64,000 bases of DNA from an uncultured Armatimonadota bacterium (GTDB lineage: Bacteria; Armatimonadota; Fimbriimonadia; Fimbriimonadales; Fimbriimonadaceae). Location of the stretch: NCBI GenBank assembly GCA_903899015.1, contig CAIUHP010000078.1, positions 1 to 64,000 of the forward strand. The letters run 5' to 3'. The notes under the pieces were generated by a model that was not told the DNA's origin, ran no database searches, and worked only from the letters and a program-made list of their open reading frames with translations. The position numbers and the translations under genes are program-made. This document shows positions 12,259 to 27,148 of the stretch, in pieces. The stretch's first letter is position 1; each line of letters begins with the position of its first letter.

Positions 12259-13032
12259 TTACTTGCCCGAGCCCTTAACCTTATGCAACTCCCAATGCAT
12301 AACTGCCTTGACCTCACCTTTCGCGCCGCCGATGACGACCGTTTGGGTCTGGGTGTTGACTCCGTTAAGCGATTGAGGATGTGGAGGAAGGGTATCGGTG
12401 AACTTGATTGGGATGTCCATGCTCTGAATCCCAGACTCCGTTGGGTAGTCGGTCATCGTATGAACATAGCGGCACGGCAAGCTCCAGGCTGCAGTCACAT
12501 TGACCAGCATCGAATCTGCACCGTTGGCATGTTGGGACTTGAGTTCCATTTGTCCCGCCTGCAACGTGTACGGTGCGCTGAGGTCGGCTACCGGCCCATT
12601 GACTTTGAACGATTCCGCGATCGGCTCAACCTTTCCAAGACATCCTCCGCCTCCCAAGAAGTTATGGGTCAGCGTGTCCTGGACACTTACATCGTGCAGG
12701 TCTTCGACTTGGAAGTAGTATCCGCCTCGACCCTCGGTGTACAGGGTATCTCGCACGTTGTAGCCTCGGAAGATCGAGTAAATCTTCCCCTTGGCAACTC
12801 GATTGACCTCCCAAGTCTCATTGTCGTCTTGCATATGGCTCTCACCCTTGCCTTTGACTTCGAGGGTGAATGTTCCTTCGTAGAGGGGCGGAGTCCAATC
12901 GTGGATGACCAAAGGGAAGTACTTGGTCGTAAACAAAGAGGTGCGGTTGAGCATATCTGGCAAAACGGATTTGACCAGGGCAGGAATATTTCCGGTTGCC
13001 GTACTTGCGACTGCGCTAATCGCGTCGAGCAT
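12259..13032 (-). CDS. Hypothetical beta-rich protein
   Basis: 257 residues starting with an amphipathic helix, then a long beta-rich sequence ('YEGTFTLEVKGKGESH', 'TLQAGQMELKSQ', 'AAWSLPCRYVHT'). There is no classical signal peptide, and a stop codon directly precedes the ATG, which fixes the longest start. The opposite strand is open for 289 codons, but that translation is low-complexity shadow sequence. No family recognised. Confidence 0.6.
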   Translation of the reverse strand: MLDAISAVASTATGNIPALVKSVLPDMLNRTSLFTTKYFPLVIHDWTPPLYEGTFTLEVKGKGESHMQDDNETWEVNRVAKGKIYSIFRGYNVRDTLYTEGRGGYYFQVEDLHDVSVQDTLTHNFLGGGGCLGKVEPIAESFKVNGPVADLSAPYTLQAGQMELKSQHANGADSMLVNVTAAWSLPCRYVHTMTDYPTESGIQSMDIPIKFTDTLPPHPQSLNGVNTQTQTVVIGGAKGEVKAVMHWELHKVKGSGK

Positions 13033-13122
13033 TCAATTTGCTCAATATCTATATAATCGGCTCGGCTGGCAATTTCCTCGCATTTAGCGAAAGAAAGTGA
13101 AAAAGGTTGTTTCTGAGTCTGA

Positions 13123-13383
13123 TCACCATTCCACGTGTTCGCAGAACAGCACGCGGAAATATTGGACGAACCACCAAATGGAGCCCACCTGCAAACCAAT
13201 GATCAGTAGCACCATGAGCTTGTCAGCATGATTTGAAACCGCCCAGACGAAGGCGGTAAATAGCTGGCAGGAACCAGCCCTTCCCAGCAGAAAGAGATGA
13301 ATGATTTCCCCGCCAAGCCAATGCCAAAGAAGTCCGATGAGCCAGAGGACGAAGAGAATGAGAAATAGGTTTTCCACCCTCAT
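13123..13383 (-). CDS. Small membrane protein, N-terminus Lmo0937-like
   Basis: About 86 residues. The first 30 ('LFLILFVLWLIGLLWHWLGGEIIHLFLL') closely resemble the short Lmo0937/DUF5670 membrane-protein family, which are about 50 residues long. The rest ('GRAGSCQ...' and a second hydrophobic stretch) does not resemble that family, so the C-terminus may be a fusion or the result of an old frameshift. The ATG at 13383 is preferred over a TTG at 13404. It is divergent from the gene at 13408. Confidence 0.5.
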   Translation of the reverse strand: MRVENLFLILFVLWLIGLLWHWLGGEIIHLFLLGRAGSCQLFTAFVWAVSNHADKLMVLLIIGLQVGSIWWFVQYFRVLFCEHVEW

Positions 13384-13407
13384 ATATGATGCGACGAGAG
13401 TCAAAAT

Positions 13408-13980
13408 ATGAGGAATGAGGATCGGCGAAGAGTGAACACTGAGGATCGCAGGGCGGCGTTCATCAGGCGAATTGAAATCTACAATCCCGAAGATGCCGCA
13501 AGGAACGCGCTCAATTTAGCCGTTCAGACTCGGAAATATCCAATCTATTCGGACTCAGTTAGCTTCGAGGGCAAAGATCGTTTTCGTGCCTCAATAATCT
13601 CCGCGATGAAATCGCATGCGTCGATCTATCGTGAAGGAGTCGAAGAGGTTGATCATCTAAGGACCATTTCCCAACTGGCTAACTCCATGTCGAGTGACCA
13701 TGCGGAGGTTCTGATTGGCGGACGACTGAGAATTGGCACGGCCCAGAAAGCACTGAACCTGTTTCTAAAAACCATGTGGTGCCTCGAATCCGACTTCGCT
13801 ACGCCACCTCATTGTCCTGTTGATGGGATTGTGCTCAAGGAGTCCGCCATCTGGGGCAGTTGGACTCAACTCGACTCGATTGACACCTACTCGGAGTGGA
13901 TTTCGATCATCCAACGGCGAGCTAAGTTGGGTGGGTTTGACTCAATTGCCGAGTGGGAACTGGCGATTTGGAATCCCTGA
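13408..13980 (+). CDS. Conserved-looking hypothetical protein
   Basis: 190 residues, rich in Trp and charged residues, with no signal peptide. A central 'RIGTAQKALNLFLKTMWCLE' helix and 'PPHCPVDGIVL' give it the look of a conserved alpha-helical family; I cannot name it with confidence. The last 46 codons have a degraded second copy at 14996-15136. This suggests that a tandem duplicate once existed here. No Shine-Dalgarno precedes the ATG. Confidence 0.65.
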   Translation: MRNEDRRRVNTEDRRAAFIRRIEIYNPEDAARNALNLAVQTRKYPIYSDSVSFEGKDRFRASIISAMKSHASIYREGVEEVDHLRTISQLANSMSSDHAEVLIGGRLRIGTAQKALNLFLKTMWCLESDFATPPHCPVDGIVLKESAIWGSWTQLDSIDTYSEWISIIQRRAKLGGFDSIAEWELAIWNP

Positions 13981-14166
13981 AAAGCCAGCGTAGAACCCAT
14001 TCAGTTGAGAGCTTGGTCTGGGCGTTTAACTAGATACGGTGTCTAGCCTATCCAGAATCTTCCTTCTTTGGATTACCAATCAAACCCGCAAACAGAGCAC
14101 CAGTTGGTGGAATTTGCCGATTCTTGCTCAAAACGACGAGTCAAGAAGCGTATCCATCCCTGGCTC

Positions 14167-14772
14167 TCAGTTCATGTAGTTAATTCCGCTTGGACCCTGG
14201 TAACTTTCAGGTGCCCAACCAGTGTTGTATTTTCGTAATGCGACCTTACCTCTGCACACAGTCGCAGTAACTACTTTTCCATCTTCATCGGTGGTTGCAG
14301 CCCACTCAAAGCTAATTTCCGCCACCGCCTCGGTGGATGACGTGATTGAATAGCGATCCATCTTGCGCCAGTTAGTTCCTCGCGACGGCTTCCAACTTTT
14401 AGCCTGCCAGTCGTCAATGACGCTCAAAGCCGCTCTGGAGATTTCACCCTCCTCACTTGTATTGCCAGGGGAAGGACTTGGAGCCTCGGTTTGAGAACCG
14501 CTTGCTGGATAGCTTGTACTTTGGTCGCCGTTTGGGTTCACTGGAATTGTTGTTGGCTGCTGGGGCGATAGGGCTGCTGGAGGAGGTTGAGTGAAAGTCG
14601 CCTGCGGTGCACCGTGCTGAACGGGCTGACTCATGGCGGGGGTCGGTGACGGTGCCGACTGCGGCGTCGGCTTTTGGATCGGGCTCGGTTGGCAGCCCAA
14701 AACCATGCTCGTCACAACAAGGGCACCCACAATATTTCGAATTGAAAGCATCTGTTTCGTCAGCCTAACCAT
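14167..14772 (-). CDS. Proline-rich lipoprotein, hypothetical
   Basis: About 201 residues from the ATG at 14772, which has GGAG about five bases upstream. The signal peptide ends in the lipobox 'MVLGC', followed by a Pro/Ser/Gln-rich linker (about 22-110) and a small C-terminal globular domain ('AALSVIDDWQAKSWK', 'EISFEWAATTDEDGKVV'). The layout of lipid anchor, flexible spacer and domain suggests an envelope-attached protein. It is inserted between the gene at 13408 and its degraded copy. Function unknown. Confidence 0.75.
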   Translation of the reverse strand: MVRLTKQMLSIRNIVGALVVTSMVLGCQPSPIQKPTPQSAPSPTPAMSQPVQHGAPQATFTQPPPAALSPQQPTTIPVNPNGDQSTSYPASGSQTEAPSPSPGNTSEEGEISRAALSVIDDWQAKSWKPSRGTNWRKMDRYSITSSTEAVAEISFEWAATTDEDGKVVTATVCRGKVALRKYNTGWAPESYQGPSGINYMN

Positions 14773-15481
14773 CACACTCCGTAACCTTACCATCCAAAAT
14801 GACGGCTAACCTTCATCAAGTGAACGCAACCAATATGAATCCTAGTTTGGCCCTACGAATGCAAGATCACATCGACAAGGGATCATCTGTCACCCGACGT
14901 CACCAAAGAAACGGTTGCCCGCAAAGACATCCTTTGGAAATCCTCGTCGGCACGACAGGTTCTCCGCCCTTATAGTCGATGAGATTATTCTGTAGGAGGC
15001 CGGTATCTGGGGTAGCTGGACGCAACTTGATTCGATTGACACCTGCTCTGAGTGGATTTCGGTGAAACGAAGGCGAGCTACGTGGGGTGGGTATGGGTCA
15101 TTCGCCGAGTGGGATTTGGCGATTTGGAACCCTTGAATAGCCTACTGAAATCTTTCCCATGAAAGGGTAGGGCTTAGAAATGACGCCTCAACCAGACGCA
15201 TTTAGGTCAACATAAAGGTCAACATTGCTTGTGCTGATGCCCCTATGCGTTGTTCAAATTGGGCGCGGAAACACCAAAATTGAACCTCGCGCGGTCGGAG
15301 CCTAAATCCAACTTAAATCCCAGTCGATTTTTTCAATTCATGCCGACATTTGCCCTGAGCCTGCCGCCAAATCGAGTTTTCGAGATATTTATTGTGTGCG
15401 ACAGGCAATCGTATTGTGTGCGCACAAGGCATTCAACGGATCGAAAGGAAGCAAGTTTGAACCTAAAACTGCTGAATTTCT
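14773..15481. other. Gene-poor stretch before tRNA-Arg
   Basis: About 700 bases without an intact gene. It holds the degraded gene copy listed separately (14969-15136). The plus-strand ORF at 15250-15546 runs through the tRNA antisense and is a known type of false ORF. Confidence 0.6.
14969..15136 (+). pseudogene. Degraded 3' copy of the gene at 13408-13980
   Basis: Codons 14996-15136 read 'EAGIWGSWTQLDSIDTCSEWIS...FAEWDLAIWNP' then stop, colinear and gap-free with the last 46 codons of the intact gene (13840-13980). Upstream codons 14972-14992 (IVDEIIL) still match 'PVDGIVL', but a TAG at 14993-14995 replaces the Lys codon. Further 5' homology is lost. It is therefore a decayed paralogue fragment, not a functional gene. 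Confidence 0.85.
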
Positions 15482-15557
15482 TGGCGGCCTCGGAGGGACT
15501 CGAACCCCCGACGCCCTCCTTAGGACGGAGGCGCTCTATCCCCTGAGCTACGAGGCC
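15482..15557 (-). tRNA. tRNA-Arg (anticodon CCU), CCA encoded
   Basis: The complement folds into a complete cloverleaf of 76 bases. The acceptor GGCCTCG pairs with CGAGGCC, D-stem GCTC with GAGC, anticodon stem CCTCC with GGAGG around loop GTCCTAA (anticodon CCT), and T-arm GGGGG-TTCGAGT-CCCTC. The discriminator is G and the CCA end is encoded (15482-15484). It reads AGG codons. Confidence 0.97.
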
Positions 15558-15723
15558 GCGAGGCCTTAGTGTACTTGGTTCGGGAGGCTGGGTTCAAATG
15601 GCGGCCGCTTTTGAGATTTCTGAATCAAGTTATGCTTGGGGAGGTTACTGTTTTAACCTCTGAGCTTTCTATGCTTTGCTTATAGCTTGTTTGGAGGGAG
15701 GCGGTGTCGTCGTAGACCAGGAC

Positions 15724-16101
15724 CTAGATGAGTCGGGGGAATTGTCCGTGTTTGTCGATCACTTTCTGGATCATGTGGCCCATGAGGGAGTGGACGTCCA
15801 TCCGGCATTCGGGATCGCTGAATTGGAGTCCGCGCGAGTCCAGGTCATCCACCGATAGGGTGCCCATCTGTTGCATCCACGATTCGATCTCTTGCTCTAG
15901 GCTTCGGCAGAAGTCGACCAGGTTCGCTGGAGATTGTGGAATTACTTTGTGTTGCCAGTCGAATGCCCTCCACTGCCATCTACGCCCGGAAATTGTTCTT
16001 GAACTTGGTGCGGCTTGATGAAGTGTCGCATCCCAATGTTCGGGTTTCAACTTGCGACGTACTCGTTGTTGAGCGAATTCAGAAACGAGTGTTAGGTCCA
16101 T
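15724..16101 (-). CDS. Hypothetical protein, weakly DinB-like C-terminus
   Basis: 125 residues. The last third ('DVHSLMGHMIQKVIDKHGQFPRLI') has the spacing of the final helix of DinB/DUF664 proteins, which carry a metal-binding His and end with a 'HxGQ' motif. The N-terminal helix with the first metal His is not evident, and the protein is shorter than the usual 150-170 residues. It could be a truncated or diverged DinB-like protein or a false ORF. Confidence 0.4.
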   Translation of the reverse strand: MDLTLVSEFAQQRVRRKLKPEHWDATLHQAAPSSRTISGRRWQWRAFDWQHKVIPQSPANLVDFCRSLEQEIESWMQQMGTLSVDDLDSRGLQFSDPECRMDVHSLMGHMIQKVIDKHGQFPRLI

Positions 16102-16475
16102 GGGGCGGTTCTTTTTCAGATTCCTTTTGGATTAGAAAGGCGAGGTCTCTATGCTGAGTAGGAGAACATAGACCGTCAAGAATGGCGTAGCCTTGCCAAA
16201 TGGATGGAACTTATGATATTCCGCAGTCACGAACGGCGAGCCACTGGTTCTCGTTTAGGCATCTCTGCCTTATATCCGAAGATCAATGGGCGCCTTACGA
16301 ATCCTAATGGGAGCTTTGAAATTGAAAGTAGTCAGGAAAAAGGGAGTAAAACGCCGGTACGAGCCATCCGGCGGCTACGAAGTTCCTTAGGGTGGGTGTG
16401 ATCGCTTTGGGTATTTGGCACTGAAATCAAAACCGGGGTGCATCGCATCCCCGGTTTTGATTATTTTCTGACGGA
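16102..16475. other. Intergenic region upstream of tRNA side, one terminator
   Basis: About 370 bases. Apart from the hairpin at 16425-16462 I see no gene or conserved structure. Confidence 0.55.
16425..16462 (-). terminator. Terminator after the Hcp-like gene
   Basis: AATCAAAACCGGGG and CCCCGGTTTTGATT form a perfect 14-base stem with a 10-base loop, 13 bases past the Hcp-like stop. On the minus strand it is followed by TTTC, and on the plus strand by ATTTT, so it may act in both directions. Confidence 0.75.
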
Positions 16476-16931
16476 CTAGCCGCCCTTGTTCATCTGAATA
16501 TCCCAAAAATGGTCATCACTCATAGAGGTTGAACCATCTTTGTTCGTGGTGTATTGCTTGTATTCAATCTTGGTGAAGAAGATCGACAAGGTTTCTGTTG
16601 GGGCACCGCCTCCGTCAGAAGCAGACTCCTGGTAAGACACAATTGAAGCGTTTGTCAGCGTGTACGAGGCGGTCAGCACTTCGTTTGCATTCTGGTTCAC
16701 TTTGGTCAAGGACAGCTCGAGTTTGCCGAGAGTCTTGCCCGCTGCGGCTGCCAGCATTAGGCTCGGGCCGTGAAAAGTCGCTGCCTTCATTACGGTAAGT
16801 GAACTGAAGATAGGTTTTCCATTACCGGAATTGGTTACGCCCCAAGCGAACGACATCAGTTGGAACTGGTTTGGAAAGGCCTTCGATGTTGAATCGCCGG
16901 CAATGGTGGGAATTTGGAGTTAGATAGACAT
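16476..16931 (-). pseudogene. Hcp-family (T6SS tube) protein with stop at codon 4
   Basis: The open frame from 16856 encodes most of an Hcp/TssD beta-barrel ('FAWGVTNS', 'GPSLMLAAAAGKTLGKLELSLTK', 'PTETLSIFFTKIEYKQY', C-terminal 'FWDIQMNK'). Upstream in the same frame the missing first strand is present ('LQIPTIAGDSTSKAFPNQFQL'). An ATG at 16931 has an AAGGA ribosome site, but codon 4 is TAA (16920-16922) where Hcp proteins usually carry an aromatic residue ('MSIYL'). Either the gene is newly inactivated, a base was misread, or translation restarts inside. It lies 15 bases behind the kelch gene. No other T6SS gene is in the window. Confidence 0.75.
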
Positions 16932-16946
16932 GTTTAGAATCCTTAT

Positions 16947-17576
16947 TTAGAGAGGCTGAGCCTGTGATGTTCCGTAAACATGGATAACTTCCATGCTCCC
17001 GACGATGGCCTGAGAACTGCCGCCGACAATGTAAATACTCGAGCCGTCAAATACGGCGCAGTGGTCGTACCGAGGCTGATCAAGCGGCTCCGCGAATTGC
17101 CATTGGTTGGTTCTAGGATCGTAGACCTCGACAGATGCCGTTGCGTCCATCGACATCCCCCCTAAGACCACGACTCTGCCGTCTCTTAGAGCGACCATTG
17201 CATGACGGGCACGCGGAATGTTCATTGGCGCGACCGCAGTACATGTGCCGGTATTTGAGTCCACGATCATCGCGGAGGTCAGCGGAATTGGCATAACGCC
17301 ATCCGTCGGAGGAGCGCTATAGCCTCCAGAGACCATAATCCTGCCATCGGCCATGCAGACGGATGCAAGCATATATCGAGTGACCGGAAAATCACTGGAA
17401 ACCGACTCTGATGCCAGTGAGATTGTCGCTTTCTTAGTGAGTTTTCCGGTTGCGGAAAGGGCAGTAGGAATGCTCGCAACGATCGCAGCCGTAGCCGCTC
17501 CTAAAATGATTTGCCGCCTCGATATGGCGGACCTTTGATGGGGTGGGCTTGTTTCGTCTTCTTCTTGTTTGGACAT
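16947..17576 (-). CDS. Kelch-repeat protein with twin-Arg-like leader
   Basis: 209 residues. The leader 'ISRRQIILGAATAAIVASIPTALS' has an RR pair and a hydrophobic core, compatible with Tat export. Three to four kelch blades follow ('MADGRIMVSGGYS', 'LRDGRVVVLGGMS', 'FDGSSIYIVGGSS'). That is fewer than the five to seven needed for a closed propeller, so it may dimerise or be shortened. A good Shine-Dalgarno (AAGGAG) precedes the ATG. It is first in a two-gene operon with the Hcp-like gene. Partner and function unknown. Confidence 0.85.
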   Translation of the reverse strand: MSKQEEDETSPPHQRSAISRRQIILGAATAAIVASIPTALSATGKLTKKATISLASESVSSDFPVTRYMLASVCMADGRIMVSGGYSAPPTDGVMPIPLTSAMIVDSNTGTCTAVAPMNIPRARHAMVALRDGRVVVLGGMSMDATASVEVYDPRTNQWQFAEPLDQPRYDHCAVFDGSSIYIVGGSSQAIVGSMEVIHVYGTSQAQPL

Positions 17577-17767
17577 TCAGTTTGGACTCCTTGCGGGGGT
17601 TACATCACTATCCCGTCAGGATTGATACTCAAAAGATCCAAATGGGTATTTCTTGGAGGAAAACGACACTACGTTTCGGTAGAAGCTTGCACCCACTTAT
17701 GTATCGGGGCGATTTTGGTGCATGAAAGACCGTGACCGAGAGCGCATTGGCCTAGACGGGGCCAGAA

Positions 17768-18946
17768 TTAGGCTCCCACACTTGGGAACATGTTGGGCTC
17801 CCAGGTGTGGGTTTTTGGGTTGAAACGGTGGGTGGGTTTGGAGTCTTGGCGGGTACCGTTTCCGTCGACATACTGGGCTTTGATGGGTCGAGATTGACGG
17901 CTAGCGAAGAACGTTCTGGAGTCGATCGAGGTGGTAGTGACGACGTAGTTTGGGGAGATATCGTTCGTGCTGCCGGTGACGGATGTTAGTGATGCATCCT
18001 TGCTCACACCCACCAAAATAGGGTGACCTGCGTTTGGATTTTCGATGATGTTATTGTAGAACCGGGCAGATGTCAAGGGACCGGCTAGGTTTAGAACCGG
18101 CGCTATGTACTCGGTCATGATCTCGTTGTTGATGAGGTAAATCCGTCCGTCGCGTTCGCCTTTTTCTTGGCCGAAATTGATGACACTCTTATTCCCTTTC
18201 ATATCATGGGCTTTTTGGATGACATTGCCTAGAAGGAGAACATTCGAGTGCGGCCGGGTCGTGTCCCAGGACTCAACAAAGTCGAGTTCCCGATTCGAGG
18301 AATCGTGGATCCAACAATACTCGACTCTCACAAAGTGAGCCCGGCTCTTCAGGTTGTGTCCGGTAAGGCAGTCGTGGATATTGCAAAACTGAACGGTAAC
18401 GCTGGTTCCGCCAAGGTAGAGGTTATGATTGTATCCAGGGTCAGCAAAGTCGCCGTTCTTATAGATCTCGCAATGATCGATCCACTGATTAGATGCCGCG
18501 GTCGGATCACCGGGGGTACCGTTCGACATGATTCCCATGTCGTTGTTGTGAATATTGCAGTTGCGGACAGAGCAGTAGTTGGCACTTTGGATGCGGATGC
18601 CCGATCCGTTGTGTGAGCCATTGTGAGCCCCGTAGAGCTCAAGATTCTCAATTGAGACATAGTCGGCACCCGGATTCACTTGAATGATCGCGCGTGGAAC
18701 ATGGCCGATCCCGGAGTAATCGAAGTCGGAGCCATCAATCTTAACGCCGGGTTCTCCTACGATCCGCAGCCGTTTTTTTGTTACGTAGAGAGCGGTTCCC
18801 TTGTAATGATCGGGACTCGGATAGATGTGGATTTCGTCGCCCGCTTGCGCGGCTTCCATGGCGGTTTCGATCCTGGAGTAGACCTTATCGGGTCCGACTT
18901 CAAAGACCGATCGATGAGCAAGGAGCAAAGCCGCAGCGATCAGCAT
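17768..18946 (-). CDS. Secreted right-handed beta-helix protein
   Basis: 392 residues. A signal peptide ('MLIAAALLLAHRSVFEVG') is followed by the DUF1565/pectate-lyase-like entry motif 'YSRIETAMEAAQAGDEIHIYPS', then successive beta-helix coils such as 'RIQSANYCSVRNCNIHNNDMGIM' and 'VTVQFCNIHDCLTGHNLKSRAH'. This fold is used by polysaccharide lyases and glycan-binding proteins. Catalytic residues are not obvious, so enzyme activity is unproven. It is monocistronic, followed on the same strand by the kelch gene after 190 bases. Confidence 0.85.
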   Translation of the reverse strand: MLIAAALLLAHRSVFEVGPDKVYSRIETAMEAAQAGDEIHIYPSPDHYKGTALYVTKKRLRIVGEPGVKIDGSDFDYSGIGHVPRAIIQVNPGADYVSIENLELYGAHNGSHNGSGIRIQSANYCSVRNCNIHNNDMGIMSNGTPGDPTAASNQWIDHCEIYKNGDFADPGYNHNLYLGGTSVTVQFCNIHDCLTGHNLKSRAHFVRVEYCWIHDSSNRELDFVESWDTTRPHSNVLLLGNVIQKAHDMKGNKSVINFGQEKGERDGRIYLINNEIMTEYIAPVLNLAGPLTSARFYNNIIENPNAGHPILVGVSKDASLTSVTGSTNDISPNYVVTTTSIDSRTFFASRQSRPIKAQYVDGNGTRQDSKPTHRFNPKTHTWEPNMFPSVGA

Positions 18947-19025
18947 AAGGTGTGTGCCTCGTAAAGGAAGGAGAGCAGTTGGATCTTCCGAACCTATTCA
19001 AAAGATCCAACCACTCTCAGCGCGT

Positions 19026-19757
19026 TTAGCTTAAGCCTTTGGACTTGAAGAACTCGAAACTCTCTCGAACCGCTTCGATCGGATCGCCAGGAGACTCATC
19101 AAGCTCGATCGAGCCGTACTCGACACCCGCCGCGAGACAGGCAGGAATGATGGCATCCCAATCAAGAATGCCTTGACCGGCTGGACGCCACTGAGGAGTC
19201 TTGCTCGGATCGTAGTCCTTGAGGTGGACCATAGGCGTTCGGTCCGCGAATTTCTGAATGTATTCGACTGGGTCCGCGCCGCCAATATGGACCCATGCAA
19301 GGTCAAGTTGGGCCTTGAGGATATCGGGGCTCGTAGCACCGTAAAGAGCGACTAAACCGTCAGTTGCAAACTCAAATGCGTGGTTGTGATATCCCAGTTG
19401 AAGTCCCTGGCTCTTCAGCATTTGGCCAATCGGTTGCAGTTCTCGTCCAAATGCATCCCATCCGTCCTTGTAGTGTGCTTCGCCAATCCAGGGGACGACT
19501 GCGGTTTCGATCCCCATCGTTTTGCAGTTAGCAACCACTTCGTCAAAGTCGTCACGCATTTGCTCAAAGCCAATATGGCCCGCGCTGAACTTGAGGCCAC
19601 GCTCATCTAGCATGCTCTTCCACTCGGCGGCTGATTTGTCGTAGTAGCCGGCAAATTCGACGTACTTCAGGCCGATTTCGGCGACTTTGTCCAAGGTACC
19701 GGTCAAGTCCTGCGCGAGTGCGTCTCGCAAGGTGTAAAGCTGAAGTGAGATCCTCAT
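19026..19757 (-). CDS. Sugar phosphate isomerase/epimerase (AP endonuclease 2 fold)
   Basis: 243 residues of the xylose-isomerase-like TIM barrel family. The start 'MRISLQLYTLRDAL' is typical, as are 'EIGLKYVEFAGYY', 'LGYHNHAFEF' with a metal-binding His/Glu, 'LDLAWVHIGG' (Asp) and 'MVHLKDYD'. Such proteins isomerise or epimerise keto sugars or inosose in cytosolic catabolism. A paralogue is at 46057-46809. A CATAAT -10 on the minus strand lies eight bases before the start, so the message may be nearly leaderless. Confidence 0.92.
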   Translation of the reverse strand: MRISLQLYTLRDALAQDLTGTLDKVAEIGLKYVEFAGYYDKSAAEWKSMLDERGLKFSAGHIGFEQMRDDFDEVVANCKTMGIETAVVPWIGEAHYKDGWDAFGRELQPIGQMLKSQGLQLGYHNHAFEFATDGLVALYGATSPDILKAQLDLAWVHIGGADPVEYIQKFADRTPMVHLKDYDPSKTPQWRPAGQGILDWDAIIPACLAAGVEYGSIELDESPGDPIEAVRESFEFFKSKGLS

Positions 19758-19813
19758 TTGTAGGGATTATGGATCAACTTTGGCACGGTTGGATGCCCTT
19801 GAATGCACGAAAC

Positions 19814-19854
19814 AAAAAACCCCTCGTTCCCAATTTCGAATCGGAAGCGAGGGG
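19814..19854 (-). terminator. Rho-independent terminator of the gene at 19874
   Basis: On the minus strand CCCCTCG...CGAGGGG closes a hairpin that is followed directly by TTTTTTG. It lies 20 bases past the stop of the Pro/Lys-rich protein gene. Confidence 0.85.
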
Positions 19855-19873
19855 CTCAATTCTGGCTTTGCCT

Positions 19874-20164
19874 TTACGGTGCAGCTGGCTTATTCTCAGC
19901 CGGTTTATCCTCAGTCTTACCAGTTGGTTTGGAATCCTTGGGCTTTACATCGGCGGCCGGATTGTGAGCTTTCATCGGGCTGTTGCCAGGAGGGGTTGTA
20001 GGAGCCCCGGGCATCTTCGTAGGCGGGCCGGTCTTCTTGATGATCGTGAGTGGGACATCCTCTTGTGCCTTATCACTCTGCATGGTTGTATAAACCACGA
20101 AGCCTGAGGCACCAATTGCAAGTAGAGTTCCGACGATGACAAGCGGCTTTGCTGAATTTTTCAT
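19874..20164 (-). CDS. Small membrane-anchored Pro/Lys-rich protein
   Basis: About 96 residues from the ATG at 20164. One N-terminal hydrophobic helix (about 6-26) anchors or exports the protein. The remainder is disordered, rich in Pro, Lys and Ala, with 'PPTKMPGAPTTPPGNSP' as the densest part. No family recognised. It is downstream of the zinc-ribbon/TPR gene with a 78-base gap, and ends with a strong terminator. Confidence 0.65.
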   Translation of the reverse strand: MKNSAKPLVIVGTLLAIGASGFVVYTTMQSDKAQEDVPLTIIKKTGPPTKMPGAPTTPPGNSPMKAHNPAADVKPKDSKPTGKTEDKPAENKPAAP

Positions 20165-20242
20165 GATTGAAAATGAAGCCCACACAGTTGAGGGTATGGA
20201 TGTTTATACCCCCTGTCGGTGGACTTCGTCTCAAAGATGCTT

Positions 20243-21337
20243 TTACTGCCCGGTAGTGGTTGGCAGAGTGCTGTCACCTGAACTGGTCTGGGGTGGAGGA
20301 TTGGTTCCCAAGTCAACATTCACCTTAGTCGGCCATTCGTTTTGGAGAATGTAGTTGATCCACGCGTCAGGCGAATCCGCCTTTTGCTGCCATTCAGGCG
20401 TCTGAGTCTCTGCGAGTCGAGAGCGAGAAACGTCCGCGGTATAGCTAAGCTTGCCCGCGCGATTCGATCGAATGGTCACCATGGGTACGTCGGGCGAGAG
20501 TTCCAAACCCGATTTCGCCAAGATCGCCCCAATCTTTCGTTCGTCTTCGTCCACGTTCGATGTGTAGGTTAGGGTGAGGCTCTTCGTGCGCGGATCCAAC
20601 ATTGCACTAACCAAGTGGCTTCCCATCGCACTTTTATCGCTGATGAGTTGGAAGAGGTCATGGTCTTCAGATGAATTGGCAGGGGGTGCCACCGGAACCG
20701 TGTTATCCACCGGAGGAAGCGCCTGAGCATTGTCCAGTTGTTTATTAATGGTCTGGTTTGTGGCGGTGCTTACAGGAACCATGTCAGGGGTCGCCTTGAT
20801 CGGGGTCGAAACAACGGCTGGCTCTGAAACACCTGCAAACTTGCCGTGTCGAGCAGCATAAATCACCACGAGCAGAAGCACGATAGCGACTCCACTTAGC
20901 ATTCCGACTTTATTGATCGGCGCTTGACGACTTTCTGGCAAGCCAAGTTGTTCGATAGAAGAGATATGATCTCGCTCCTTGATTTGTTCCCGAACATCCT
21001 CGATTTTTTGAAGGTCGTTTGGCGATGTTGGATCGAGATCCAGGGCCAGCTCAAACCATTGGGCAGCCTGGTCCAGGAGGCCTTGGTCGCTGTAAATATC
21101 TCCGAGCAAGGAATGAGCGGCGACCGAATTCGGGAAACGCTTGAGCACGCTGAGGCATAAATCTTCAGCGGCTCGGAACTCTCCTCGCATCCGGAGCAGA
21201 TTGGCCCGGGCCAGTTCGGCGTCAAAGTTACTACTCATCGGATCAACGTCTCGAGGTGCCCCCAATTGAGCCCCACATTCTGGGCATACCGATAGCCCGT
21301 TGCTGACATCCGCTTGACACAGGTTACAGATTCTCAT
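20243..21337 (-). CDS. Zinc-ribbon, TPR and single-pass membrane protein
   Basis: About 364 residues from the ATG at 21337. The protein opens with a zinc ribbon 'CNLCQADVSNGLSVCPECG' (two CxxC pairs), followed by TPR-like helices ('AAEDLCLSVLKRFPNSVAAHSLLGDIY', 'AAQWFELALDLDP'), one transmembrane helix ('VGMLSGVAIVLLLVVIYAA'), a Pro/Thr/Val-rich linker and a C-terminal extracytoplasmic domain. Longer starts would overlap dut. The start is seven bases after the dut stop, so they are probably co-transcribed. Likely an envelope-stress or scaffold protein; function unknown. Confidence 0.8.
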   Translation of the reverse strand: MRICNLCQADVSNGLSVCPECGAQLGAPRDVDPMSSNFDAELARANLLRMRGEFRAAEDLCLSVLKRFPNSVAAHSLLGDIYSDQGLLDQAAQWFELALDLDPTSPNDLQKIEDVREQIKERDHISSIEQLGLPESRQAPINKVGMLSGVAIVLLLVVIYAARHGKFAGVSEPAVVSTPIKATPDMVPVSTATNQTINKQLDNAQALPPVDNTVPVAPPANSSEDHDLFQLISDKSAMGSHLVSAMLDPRTKSLTLTYTSNVDEDERKIGAILAKSGLELSPDVPMVTIRSNRAGKLSYTADVSRSRLAETQTPEWQQKADSPDAWINYILQNEWPTKVNVDLGTNPPPQTSSGDSTLPTTTGQ

Positions 21338-21344
21338 GTTGCGA

Positions 21345-21782
21345 TTACCGTCCCGTGCTGCCAAATCCGCCATTGCCGCGCTGAGTTTCATCAAGTTCGT
21401 TCACCAAGATCAAGGTGGCTTTTACGACTGGGCTCAGTACAAGCTGCCCAATTCGCTCGCCCTGTTTAAATTGGACTGCTTCCGAGCCAAAATTGATCAA
21501 GATGAGCTTCACTTCCCCCCTGTAGTCTGAGTCGATAGTCCCGGGGGTGTTCACCATCGATATGCCGTGTTTGAATGCAAGACCGGAACGAGGGCGAACC
21601 TGTGCTTCGTATCCAATCGGAACCGCGATCCGTACGCCCGTCGCGACCATTTTTCGCTCCATCGGTTGAAGTTCAAAGTCTTCGGAACAGCAAAGATCCA
21701 GCCCGGCGGCGCCTTCCGTCTGGTACGTTGGCATCGTAGCGGAATCAGAAAGCATAATCGGAACTTCAACGGAGTCAATCAC
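21345..21782 (-). CDS. dut: dUTP diphosphatase
   Basis: Hydrolyses dUTP to dUMP and pyrophosphate, keeping uracil out of DNA and supplying dTMP synthesis. All five trimeric dUTPase motifs are visible: '[11 protein letters not shown]' (1), '[11 protein letters not shown]' (2), '[14 protein letters not shown]' (3, with the catalytic Asp), '[12 protein letters not shown]' (4) and the C-terminal '[11 protein letters not shown]' (5, Arg finger). Its 145 residues are the standard length. The start is GTG. It is divergent from pxpB with 52 bases between. Confidence 0.97.
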
Positions 21783-21834
21783 AGGGATAAGTTACACCGT
21801 TCGTGCCCATTTTCGTCATATTCCTTGAAGAGAT

Positions 21835-22467
21835 ATGAAAGCCGAGCCACTTGGAGACTCCGCCTTGATCCTACGGGAACTCTCGCGCCCAGCTTATGAA
21901 GTCGCGGCAGCCATCCAGCTTGCCTCCATTCCAGGCGTGATCGAGGCAGTAGCAAGCTATGAGTCGGTCGGCATCTACTTCGATCCGGATAAGTTCGATA
22001 TTAAGGCTTTGTTGGCCTTCAAGCCTGAGGGTCATTCACAATCCGGCAAGGCTTACGTCGTCCCCGTTTACTACGAACTAGGCGAAGATCTTGGTGAGGT
22101 GGCAGGAGCAACTGGATTGTCGACGGAAGAAGTGATACGCCTCCACACTTCCGTCTCATATAAGTGTTACGCAGTGGGATTTTGCCCCGGCTTTCCTTAC
22201 CTTGGATATTTGCCTGAGGCTCTCGCAAGCATTCCTCGTCGTCCCTCACCACGAGTGCGGATCCATCCTGGTTCGGTCGCGATTGCGGGTCGGCAAACCG
22301 GGATCTATCCGATCGAGCGCCCGGGCGGTTGGTCGATTTTGGGGCGAACTCCACTTTGCATCGCAGATGTGGAAAGCGCATACTTTCCGATAGCAGCGGG
22401 CGACGAAGTTCAGTTCCGTGCGATCGATCGGGCGGAGTATGACGACCTGGTCGGGAATCGGTTATGA
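21835..22467 (+). CDS. pxpB: 5-oxoprolinase subunit PxpB
   Basis: Formerly KipI-like. Together with PxpC it phosphorylates 5-oxoproline (pyroglutamate) before ring opening by PxpA. The 210 residues contain the family motifs 'EPLGDSALIL' at the start and 'YAVGFCPGFPYLGYL', 'PRPSPRVRIHPGSVAIAG' and 'YPIERPGGWSILGRTP' in the CT_C_D domain. The stop overlaps the pxpA start (ATGA). Gene order is B-A-C. Confidence 0.95.
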   Translation: MKAEPLGDSALILRELSRPAYEVAAAIQLASIPGVIEAVASYESVGIYFDPDKFDIKALLAFKPEGHSQSGKAYVVPVYYELGEDLGEVAGATGLSTEEVIRLHTSVSYKCYAVGFCPGFPYLGYLPEALASIPRRPSPRVRIHPGSVAIAGRQTGIYPIERPGGWSILGRTPLCIADVESAYFPIAAGDEVQFRAIDRAEYDDLVGNRL

Positions 22468-23249
22468 CGGTATCGCAAATCGTAGGGCGCAAAACGATTG
22501 ATCTCAACGTCGACATCGGCGAGGGGTTCCCTTTTGATCGCGACCTCCTCCGATTCGCGAGTTCGGCAAACGTATGTTGTGGCGCCCATTCAGGGTCCCT
22601 GGAATTAACGCGAGAAACCATCGATCTCTGTTTGACTCAACGCGTACGCGTCGGTGCCCACCCTGGATATCCCGATCGTGAATCGATGGGAAGACTCGCA
22701 ATGAAAAGTGGCCAGGAGAGGATCTACTTAAAAAGCATTTTCGATCAGATGATCCAGTTCAAGCAGTATTGCGAGCCTGCTTACATGAAGCCTCATGGAG
22801 CTTTCTACGGCGACACCGCCATCGTCTTGCCCGCAAATTGGCGAACAGCGATCCGACAAGTCCCTCCCCCCGCCAGTGCTTACGAAGCGGGTGGACTTTA
22901 TCTCGCTCAATTCCCAGGGATTCAGTCGCTCACGCTCCTTCTACGCATCAACAAACTTCCTTTGATGGGTCTGAATGCGACGGCACACAAGGAAATCGCA
23001 TCAAGGGCGGGTACGAACTTAATTAAGGAAGGCTTTGGCGATCGAGGCTATTTGTCAAACGGAACCTTGATTCCGCGAGGCAGCATTGGCGCAATGCTAG
23101 CCACTGATGACGCAATCAAGGAACAGGTCTTGCGATTGGCTCCTGAAGTAGATTCGATCTGTTTGCATGGCGACACGCCCCATTGCTTGCAATATGCCGA
23201 ATTGGTTTTCAAAACCCTAGTCGACTCTGGCTACGGTGTGGGAATTTGA
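22464..23249 (+). CDS. pxpA: 5-oxoprolinase subunit PxpA
   Basis: LamB/YcsF family deacetylase-like barrel that hydrolyses phosphorylated 5-oxoproline to glutamate. The 'DLNVDIGEGF' start, 'NVCCGAHSGS', 'RVGAHPGYPDRESMGR', 'YMKPHGAFY' and 'CLHGDTP' are the conserved metal- and substrate-binding motifs. It is coupled by 4-base overlaps at both ends (ATGA and TTGA). About 261 residues is the family norm. Confidence 0.96.
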   Translation: MTVSQIVGRKTIDLNVDIGEGFPFDRDLLRFASSANVCCGAHSGSLELTRETIDLCLTQRVRVGAHPGYPDRESMGRLAMKSGQERIYLKSIFDQMIQFKQYCEPAYMKPHGAFYGDTAIVLPANWRTAIRQVPPPASAYEAGGLYLAQFPGIQSLTLLLRINKLPLMGLNATAHKEIASRAGTNLIKEGFGDRGYLSNGTLIPRGSIGAMLATDDAIKEQVLRLAPEVDSICLHGDTPHCLQYAELVFKTLVDSGYGVGI

Positions 23250-24073
23250 ACCTGACCTTAATTCAGAAATTCGGATTTGCGGAAGTTGTTGGCCCAGCTA
23301 TCGTTGGTCAGAGAAAGTTCGGAGTTCCGGTCGGAGGTGCATTTGACATTGAGTCGCACGAGCTGGCGAATGGGTTGGTGGGAGTAGACGCGGGAGCTCC
23401 TGTTTGGGAACTCGGAATGGCGCAGGCAAGATTTCGGTGTGAAATGCCAGGCTCGGTTTCTGTTATAGGTGCGCTCGCTAAGGTTCTAAAGTCCGACTCG
23501 GAGTGGGATAGTAATTCGGTCTTTGGAGTGGCTTCGGGCGAAGAATTTGTCGTTCAAGCTCCTTCAACCGGGGCTCGGGTTTATGTTGCATGGTCCCCGA
23601 TGCTTCGATCAGACGCGTCCCCACGCCGATTAATGGAAGCTCCTATGAGCGTTGCCGATCGAAATCACCTCCGAATCGTGCCAGGTCCTCAGTCAGAGTT
23701 GTTTGACTTAGGTTTATTGAAAAGAGGATTTACGGTGAGTCGAACGGGCAACCGGGTCGGAGTTCGACTCGATGAATCCATAGGTGCCCACAAAATCGAC
23801 TTACCGAGCGAACCTCAATGTGTGGGTGCGATCCAAGTCTCCAACGACGGCACACCGATCATCATCGGTCCCGACGGCCCCACCATCGGTGGCTATCCCA
23901 AAATCGGAGTCGTCATTACCAGCGACCTGAGCCGGGTGGGTCAATTGAGGCCCGGTGAATCGGTCGCGTTCGAACCTGTCAGCCTCGAACAAGCTCGTGA
24001 CATCAACACCGAGGCTCGTAAAGCCTTCAATAAGCGGCTGAGTCTTTTGCGACTAAGTTTAGGATCCTTGTGA
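23246..24073 (+). CDS. pxpC: 5-oxoprolinase subunit PxpC, TTG start
   Basis: Formerly KipA; second half of the ATP-dependent oxoproline kinase (CT_A_B domain). 'GFAEVVGPAIVGQRKFGVPVGGAFD', 'DAGAPVWELGM' and 'DGPTIGGYPKIGVVITSDL' are diagnostic. The frame is open upstream to 23183, but the start must be the TTG at 23246, which overlaps the pxpA stop as TTGA and begins where similarity begins, giving 275 residues. Ends 12 bases from the convergent uvrA stop. Confidence 0.94.
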   Translation: MNLTLIQKFGFAEVVGPAIVGQRKFGVPVGGAFDIESHELANGLVGVDAGAPVWELGMAQARFRCEMPGSVSVIGALAKVLKSDSEWDSNSVFGVASGEEFVVQAPSTGARVYVAWSPMLRSDASPRRLMEAPMSVADRNHLRIVPGPQSELFDLGLLKRGFTVSRTGNRVGVRLDESIGAHKIDLPSEPQCVGAIQVSNDGTPIIIGPDGPTIGGYPKIGVVITSDLSRVGQLRPGESVAFEPVSLEQARDINTEARKAFNKRLSLLRLSLGSL

Positions 24074-24085
24074 CGGACCTAATGG

Positions 24086-27000
24086 TCAGCTTTTCTTCTT
24101 CTTGCCGTATGACGCTTTGGTTTCAGCCGCTAAGAGTAGGGCTGGTTTTCGATCAATTTCCCTTTGGAAAATCTCGGCCAAGTAGCGCCCGGTATGACTC
24201 TGTGGCACTTTCGCCACTTCCTCAGGCGTACCCGTTGCCACGACATTTCCGCCTGCGTTGCCACCTTCCGGTCCCATGTCGATGAGATAATCGGCGGTCT
24301 TGATCACGTCGAGGTTGTGTTCGATAACAAGGACCGTATTGCCCTGCTCCACGAGTCGGTGAAGGACCGCGAGCAGCTTCTTCACGTCCTCAAAATGAAG
24401 TCCGGTTGTGGGCTCGTCAAGGATATAGATCGTATTTCCCGTCGATCGCTTCGAGAGTTCGGCGGCCAGTTTGATACGCTGGGCTTCGCCTCCCGACAGA
24501 GTCGTAGCCGGCTGACCCATTCGAATATAACCCAGGCCAACTTCTTGAAGGGTCTCTAGCTTTCGGAAGATCTTAGGAATGGGTTTGAAGTATTCGCAGG
24601 CATCGTCAATTGTCATGCCAAGCACTTCGGAGATGTTCTTGCCTTTATATTTGACTTCCAACGTTTCGCGGTTATAGCGCTTCCCTTTGCACACTTCGCA
24701 AGGAACATACACGTCAGGCAAGAAGACCATTTCGATCTTGAGAACGCCGTCACCCTTGCAGGCTTCACATCGCCCGCCTTTCACGTTGAAACTAAATCGA
24801 CCGTTTTTATATCCACGAATCTTGGCGTCTTGAGTCATCGCAAAGAGTTCGCGAATCATGTCAAAAGTGCCGGTGTAAGTTGCAGGATTCGACCGAGGGG
24901 TTCGCCCAATCGGAGACTGGTCGATGTCGATAACCTTGTCAAAATGGTCGAGGCCGGTAACGCCGTCGTGAGGTTCCCAGACGGTACGTGTTCCGTACAC
25001 TTCGTACATCAAGCGCGGAAAGAGGGTGTCCTGAATCAGCGTTGATTTACCGGAACCCGAAACACCGGTGACACATACGAAGAGGCCAAGCGGAATCTCA
25101 ATGTTGACGTTCTTGAGGTTATTGCCTCGAGCATTCTGAATCTTGATCCACTTGGGAGACAGAGTGACGGTCGTGCCTTTAGCGCCCTTTTTCGTACTCT
25201 TGGCTGGTTTGTCGATCACGAGATTATCGAATTTGCCAGAAGGCAATCGACGAGTGGTCGGAATCTCAATCTGCATCTCGCCGGTTAGATACTTCGCAGT
25301 TACCGCTTCGCTCTTGAGAAATTCCGCGACGGTTCCTTGGGCAACGATGAATCCACCGTGCTCTCCTGCACCAGGCCCCAGTTCCATAAGGTGGTCCGCC
25401 GCCATCATCGTCTCTTCGTCATGCTCCACAACGAGAACAGTGTTCCCAAGGTCGCGTAGTCGAACCAGGGTCTCGATCAGCTTGCGGTTATCCCGCTGAT
25501 GGAGTCCGATGGAAGGTTCGTCCAATATGTAAAGACAGCCCATTAGGCCCGAACCGATCTGAGTGGCAAGCCGGATGCGCTGAGCCTCTCCACCCGCTAG
25601 GGTGCGAGCATTTCGATCGAGCGTGAGGTAGCCCAAACCGACGTCGGTCAGGAATCGAAGTCGCTCGATAATCTCTTTAACAGCCCGCTCGCCAATCGCC
25701 ATCTGGCGTTTGTTCAGTTTGCTTGCGAGCCCAGAGAAGAACAGATAGGCTTCGTCGATCGCGAGAGTCGTGACGTGAGACATGTCTCGATCGCCAACCT
25801 TAACGCTGAGAGATTCCGGCTTGAGTCGCTTGCCCTTACAAACCGGGCAAGGCTTTGTCGACATGTACTGATCAAGGTCGCCCTTAACCCACTCACTTTC
25901 CGTGTTCTCGTACCGTTTGCGAAGCGCGCCCAGCACGCCGTCCCACTTGGTCTGGAAACTTCGCTCTCCTCGCGAGTACTTCATCTTGACGGTGATGGCA
26001 TCGGGCAGGCCGTTCCACACCGCAGCCATTCCTTCTTCCGGAATTTGGTTGATCGGTAATTTAGCGTCGAAACCCATTTTGAGTCCGACCGCATCCAACA
26101 TTTCCGGCCACCAATCTTTAACTTCTCCGGACTTATAAACGAACGGCAGAATGCCGCCATCGCGAAGTGATTTTGTGTGATCGGGAGCGACTAACTCGGG
26201 GTCAAATTCTGTTTTTGTACCGAGACCGGTGCATTCTGGGCAAGCTCCGTAAGGTGAGTTGAATGAGAACATTCTCGGTTCTAACTCGGGTAGCGAATAG
26301 CCACAGACCGCACAGGAATAGCTTTCAGAGAATAGGAGGTCCACGACTCCTTCTTGCTTGTCGGCCTGCTGCTCACTTTGTTGCGCGGCCAGCATCTTGG
26401 CCATTTCTGGAAGTTCCGTTCCCTTCGGAATTTCAATGGATAGCGTTACGAGCCCCTTACCCATCTTCAGAGCCGCTTCGATGGAGTCAGAAAGACGACG
26501 CTCGATTCCATCTTTGACGACGATACGGTCGACAATCACTTCGATGGTGTGCTGCTTATAGCGATCCATCGGAATGTCATCGGTTACTTCGTAGGTCTGT
26601 CCATCCACCCGCACACGGACATATCCCGCTTTATTGATATCCGTCAGAACCGATTTGTATTCGCCTTTTCGACCACGAATAACGGGGGCTAGAACTTGTA
26701 ATTTGGTTCCGTCAGGAAGGGACTTGGCGATGTCAACGATTTGGTCGGTCGATTGACGCTCAATTGGTCCATGGCCGTTGATACAGTACGGGGTACCCAC
26801 TCGAGCAAACAGGATTCGAAGGTAGTCGTAGATCTCGGTAACGGTTCCAACCGTAGACCGTGGATTCTTGCTCGCACTCTTCTGATCGATAGAGACAGCG
26901 GGGGAGAGACCGTCGATGTGGTCAACATCAGGCTTATCCATTTGCCCAAGGAACTGACGGGCGTAGGCGCTGAGCGACTCCACGTACCGTCGCTGACCTT

Positions 27001-27148
27001 CTGCGTAGATCGTGTCAAACGCGAGCGATGATTTTCCAGAACCGGATAAGCCGGTTATAACCACAAGCTTATCACGTGGTATTTCCACCGTAATGTTCTT
27101 GAGGTTATTCTCGCGGGCTCCGACGACTACGATCTTGTCTTGGGGCAT
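24086..27148 (-). CDS. uvrA: Excinuclease ABC subunit A
   Basis: DNA-damage recognition ATPase of nucleotide excision repair. The 1020-residue protein carries two ABC ATPase units. Walker A1 is GLSGSGKS at 33-40 and Walker A2 'GVSGSGKST' in the second half. Zinc modules 'CAVCGYS...CPEC' and 'CEACKGDG...CEVCKG' are intact, as are the two ABC signatures 'LAGGEAQRI' and 'LSGGEAQRI'. The -10 TACAAT (complement of 27156-27161) is only seven bases from the ATG, suggesting a leaderless message. No LexA-type box is seen in the 105 upstream bases. Confidence 0.98.

What the first reader, a model, noticed from the sequence alone, without database searches (positions are those of the whole stretch)
16476..16931. 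Hcp-like gene with a TAA at codon 4 but an otherwise intact frame
Seen directly: an ATG at 16931 with an AAGGA ribosome site is followed by TCT-ATC-TAA-CTC-CAA, and the same frame then reads a complete Hcp N-terminal strand and the rest of the protein without another stop. Hcp proteins commonly begin with an aromatic residue at this place, so one base change (TAT or TAC to TAA) explains it. Either a fresh nonsense mutation, an assembly error, or recoding/reinitiation.
Basis: partly seen in the sequence, partly recalled or inferred. Interest (0 to 1): 0.65.

Follow-up and report, generated by a model that had tools for sequence, protein, structure and literature searches.

The report
Hcp-like gene broken at codon four
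A bacterial gene for a tube-type (Hcp-like) protein carries a stop signal almost at its start, where its relatives have an aromatic amino acid; this is most likely a recent, ordinary disabling mutation (or a sequencing slip), and the more interesting point is that the gene belongs to a conserved, undescribed two-gene pair.

Summary
On the minus strand an ATG (16931) with a good ribosome site is followed by TAA at codon 4 (16922-16920). The same frame is then open for 147 codons that match Hcp (PF05638, 63 bits). The stop sits on a conserved aromatic position: 11 Tyr, 3 Phe and 2 Leu in 16 Armatimonadota relatives, all intact and starting upstream; none starts near 16856. Of 25 matches in 291 genomes of the phylum, only this one has an in-frame stop. 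It is the only Hcp-like gene in its genome. A recent single-base nonsense mutation is the best explanation; a base-call or assembly error cannot be excluded without reads. Nothing supports recoding, and reinitiation at 16856 would drop the first strand. Two additions: the gene does not look like a type VI secretion gene in context (no VipB in 20 genus genomes, no phage sheath in this one), and it belongs to a conserved pair with a short Tat-signal Kelch protein (17 pairs in 16 genomes, four families). That pair was not found in the papers searched and is the part worth following. The stop codon itself is ordinary.

The parts
16476..16931 (-). Hcp-like gene (PF05638) with in-frame TAA at codon 4
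16920..16922 (-). in-frame TAA; Tyr/Phe in 14 of 16 relatives at this column
16940..16944 (-). AAGGA ribosome-binding site, 8 nt before the ATG
16476..16856 (-). 126-codon ORF from the next in-frame ATG; no ribosome site before it; lacks the first strand
16947..17576 (-). intact upstream partner: Kelch-repeat protein, 209 aa, with a twin-arginine (SRRQIILGAA) signal-like N-terminus

Best explanation
An Hcp-like gene of an Armatimonadota bacterium (same genus as a Fimbriimonadaceae MAG) has been hit by a single-base nonsense change at codon 4, at a position where most relatives have Tyr. Ribosomes that start at the normal ATG make a tripeptide and stop, so the allele is null or nearly so. The change is recent, since the other 147 codons carry no second lesion. 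Shown: the stop, the homology right after it, the Tyr/Phe column in relatives, the intact partner gene. Inferred: that the change is real in the organism, its recency, and loss of function.
For: Stop and open frame. Homology begins before the internal ATG and includes the N-terminal strand. All 16 relatives next to a Kelch gene have an intact frame with an upstream start; column of the stop: 11 Y, 3 F, 2 L. Only 1 of 25 matches in the phylum has an in-frame stop. Chance that 441 neutral bases stay free of a second stop or frameshift falls to 5-14% at 5% divergence (assumed indel rates). Identity of the window copy to G008 and G017 (39.6, 37.5%) is like that between those two (40.0%), so there is no sign of long decay.
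Against: No second genome of the species and no reads: a base-call error would look the same. No expression data. Loss is not shown to be tolerated in this strain, although 13 of 20 genus genomes lack the Kelch-linked form altogether, so it is dispensable at genus level.
Confidence: 0.7

Rival explanations
1. Base-call or assembly error: the organism has a sense codon at this place and makes a normal Hcp-like protein.
For: Exactly one lesion in a gene that is otherwise intact and conserved, with an intact partner gene and ribosome site. The genome is in 119 contigs.
Against: A substitution error outside a homopolymer, well inside a 160,818-base contig of a 99.87% complete assembly, is uncommon; inference, no reads seen.
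Confidence: 0.2
2. Reinitiation at ATG 16856 makes a 126-residue protein that still works.
For: An in-frame ATG lies 63 bases after the TAA; many genes of this window have no clear ribosome site, so starts without one occur here.
Against: No ribosome site; the product would lack the first strand; no relative starts there; Pfam match starts only at position 41.
Confidence: 0.06
3. Programmed readthrough or recoding of TAA.
For: Only that the downstream frame is intact.
Against: All 16 linked relatives have a sense codon there; TAA is an ordinary terminator here, for example of the partner Kelch gene at 16947-16949.
Confidence: 0.03
4. The gene truly begins at 16856 and the upstream similarity is accidental.
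For: None beyond the ORF call.
Against: Homology to relatives and to solved Hcp structures runs from the first residues after the stop.
Confidence: 0.01

Closest known systems
Hcp / TssD, tube protein of type VI secretion (PF05638; P. aeruginosa Hcp1, PDB 1Y12)
   Same: Above the curated Pfam cut-off; a profile of the window protein with G008 and G017 matches 1Y12 at E 5.3e-27 over nearly the full length; a weak predicted model still finds Hcp chains first in the PDB.
   Different: Below NCBI's TssD cut-off (24.6 against 58.9 bits); no VipB/TssC in the genus; no Phage_sheath_1 in the genome; stands beside a Kelch gene; frame broken at codon 4.
Bacterial pseudogenes by nonsense mutation
   Same: One stop codon in an otherwise intact, conserved frame.
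   Different: Nothing special apart from the very early position and the lack of any further lesion.
Kelch-repeat proteins (PF01344, PF13964), for the partner gene
   Same: Kelch motifs well above cut-off.
   Different: Short (209 aa, too few repeats for a usual six- or seven-blade propeller on its own), Tat-type N-terminus, neighbour of an Hcp-like gene.

Membership tests
Hcp family (PF05638) | profile match above curated cut-off | tested here: met
   63 bits against 23.5
Hcp family (PF05638) | Hcp fold (beta barrel, hexameric ring) | tested here: inconclusive
   AlphaFold model from two sequences has pLDDT 58, N-terminus under 50; top PDB matches are nearly all Hcp or Hcp fusions, TM about 0.4-0.6; ring formation not testable
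Type VI secretion tube protein TssD | NCBIfam TIGR03344 above cut-off | tested here: not met
   24.6 against 58.9 bits; G017 relative 54.1, also below
Type VI secretion tube protein TssD | contractile sheath (TssC/VipB) in the genome | tested here: not met
   0 of 20 genus genomes, E. coli control rings; no Phage_sheath_1 in own genome either
Nonsense pseudogene | intact homologues with a sense codon at the stop position | tested here: met
   16 relatives, 11 Tyr, 3 Phe, 2 Leu
Nonsense pseudogene | the stop is real in the organism and abolishes the product | not testable with these tools
   no reads, no second strain, no proteome
Programmed recoding | stop conserved among relatives | tested here: not met
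   1 of 25 matches has a stop

The most novel reading that the evidence does not exclude
The broken gene is half of an undescribed two-gene module of Armatimonadota: a short Kelch protein with a Tat-type signal and a signal-less Hcp-like tube/ring protein, working outside type VI secretion, for instance as a carrier or chaperone ring for the exported partner. The window strain would then be a natural knock-out of one half.
Probability: 0.5. Interest if true: 0.45.

Novelty: new member of a known kind. Interest (0 to 1): 0.22.

Why it matters
The stop itself matters little: it is one more early nonsense change, and a caution that automatic annotation would call a false 126-residue Hcp starting at 16856. 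What could matter is the setting: Hcp-like proteins are usually annotated as type VI secretion parts, and here a conserved branch of them travels with a Kelch gene across a phylum, with no sheath gene found in the genus. That makes the type VI label unsafe for this branch and gives a testable pair of unknown function.

Tried and rejected
A second Hcp copy in the same genome that could compensate: none (a 34-residue hit at E 0.04 is noise). Phage records: one 2.9 kb unannotated Salmonella phage record with a 28.5% match, uninformative. Anti-phage defence library: no match for either gene. Literature for Hcp with Kelch, or Hcp in Armatimonadetes/Fimbriimonas: nothing relevant. Folding the Hcp-like and Kelch proteins with two-row alignments gave weak models (pLDDT 58 and 56). 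Other start codons between the TAA and 16856: no ATG, GTG or TTG there, only ATT and CTG codons far from the ribosome site; rejected (read).

Full report
Observation. The minus-strand sequence reads TAAATAAGGATTCTAAAC-ATG-TCT-ATC-TAA-CTC-CAA-ATT. The ATG is at 16931, the stop at 16922-16920, and the frame then runs 147 codons to TAG at 16478-16476. The part after the stop matches Pfam PF05638 (Hcp) with 63 bits from profile position 2 to 128, whereas the ORF from the next ATG (16856) matches only from position 41. So the coding homology begins right after the stop, and 16856 is not a natural start.

Relatives. The window lies in a 160,818-base contig of a 4.94 Mb genome, 119 contigs, 99.87% complete. 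A same-genus relative (G017) is the record of a named Fimbriimonadaceae MAG, which places the genome in Armatimonadota. In the same genus G008 (41% identity), G017 (38%) and G005 (34%) have intact genes starting MPIYMNLQGIEGDSTS, MPIYMRIPGFTGE and MAIDCYLQIPSLNSES, against MSI*LQIPTIAGDSTS in the window. Without any gap, the stop falls on the Tyr of MPIY in G008 and G017. Among 291 genomes of the phylum there are 25 matches to the eight-row profile; only the window's has an in-frame stop. For the 16 relatives that sit beside a Kelch gene, the column holds Tyr in 11, Phe in 3 and Leu in 2, the latter directly after a Tyr or Phe (placed by MAFFT for 14, by eye for G132 and G100). In P. aeruginosa Hcp1 (1Y12) the profile puts a Phe there. 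A single-base change of a Tyr codon is therefore the simplest history.

Mechanism. With an AAGGA site 8 bases before the ATG, ribosomes should begin at 16931 and stop after three codons. The next in-frame ATG, 63 bases after the stop, has no ribosome site, although several other genes of the window also lack one, so weak reinitiation cannot be excluded; its product would lack the first strand of the Hcp fold. There is no intact second copy in the genome. The allele is thus most likely null or nearly null (inference). It looks young: under neutral drift the chance of escaping a second stop or frameshift in 441 bases falls to 46-30% at 2% divergence and 14-5% at 5% (indel rates of 0.05 and 0.1 per substitution are assumptions). 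Identity to relatives shows no extra divergence. Recoding has no support: the stop is unique to this genome, and TAA is an ordinary terminator here (the neighbouring Kelch gene ends with it).

What remains open. Base-call error and real mutation give the same letters. No reads, no second genome of the species, and no expression data are held.

Setting. The upstream gene, 16947-17576 minus, encodes a 209-residue Kelch protein with a twin-arginine N-terminus (by eye). A Kelch gene of this kind lies beside an Hcp-like gene in 17 cases in 16 genomes, in the family of the window and in three others, f11, f13 and f15. Of 18 Kelch matches at E up to 1e-20, 16 are paired; the other two lie in longer open frames, and the flanks held for them are short. 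Most pairs run in the same direction; three are on opposite strands (G004 and both of G005). The linked Hcp-like proteins start directly at the first strand, while the unlinked relatives that I inspected mostly carry a longer, signal-like N-terminus (by eye). TssC/VipB is missing in all 20 genus genomes with the E. coli control ringing, and Phage_sheath_1 is missing in this one; the protein is also below the NCBI cut-off for TssD. So it is Hcp-like in sequence but fails tests for a type VI tube protein. What the pair does is unknown; a ring or tube protein helping an exported Kelch partner is a guess. No paper on it was found in the library.

Verdict. Observation confirmed; an ordinary recent nonsense change is the best reading (0.7), an error the next (0.2). 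Interest low for the stop, moderate for the pair.

Noticed in passing
16476-17576 minus; L023, L024, L025, L039-L047, L050, L052, L057, L069: Conserved pair of a short Tat-signal Kelch gene and an Hcp-like gene in Armatimonadota, 17 pairs in 16 genomes, with no type VI sheath gene found in the genus.
   Followed up: partly
L012, L013, L018, L019, L021, L022: Several genus genomes carry other Hcp-like proteins with signal-like N-termini, not beside a Kelch gene within the flanks held.
   Followed up: no
15482-15557 minus: tRNA-Arg (CCT), the only tRNA gene found in the window.
   Followed up: no
12259-27148: Many likely genes here have no clear ribosome site before the start codon.
   Followed up: no
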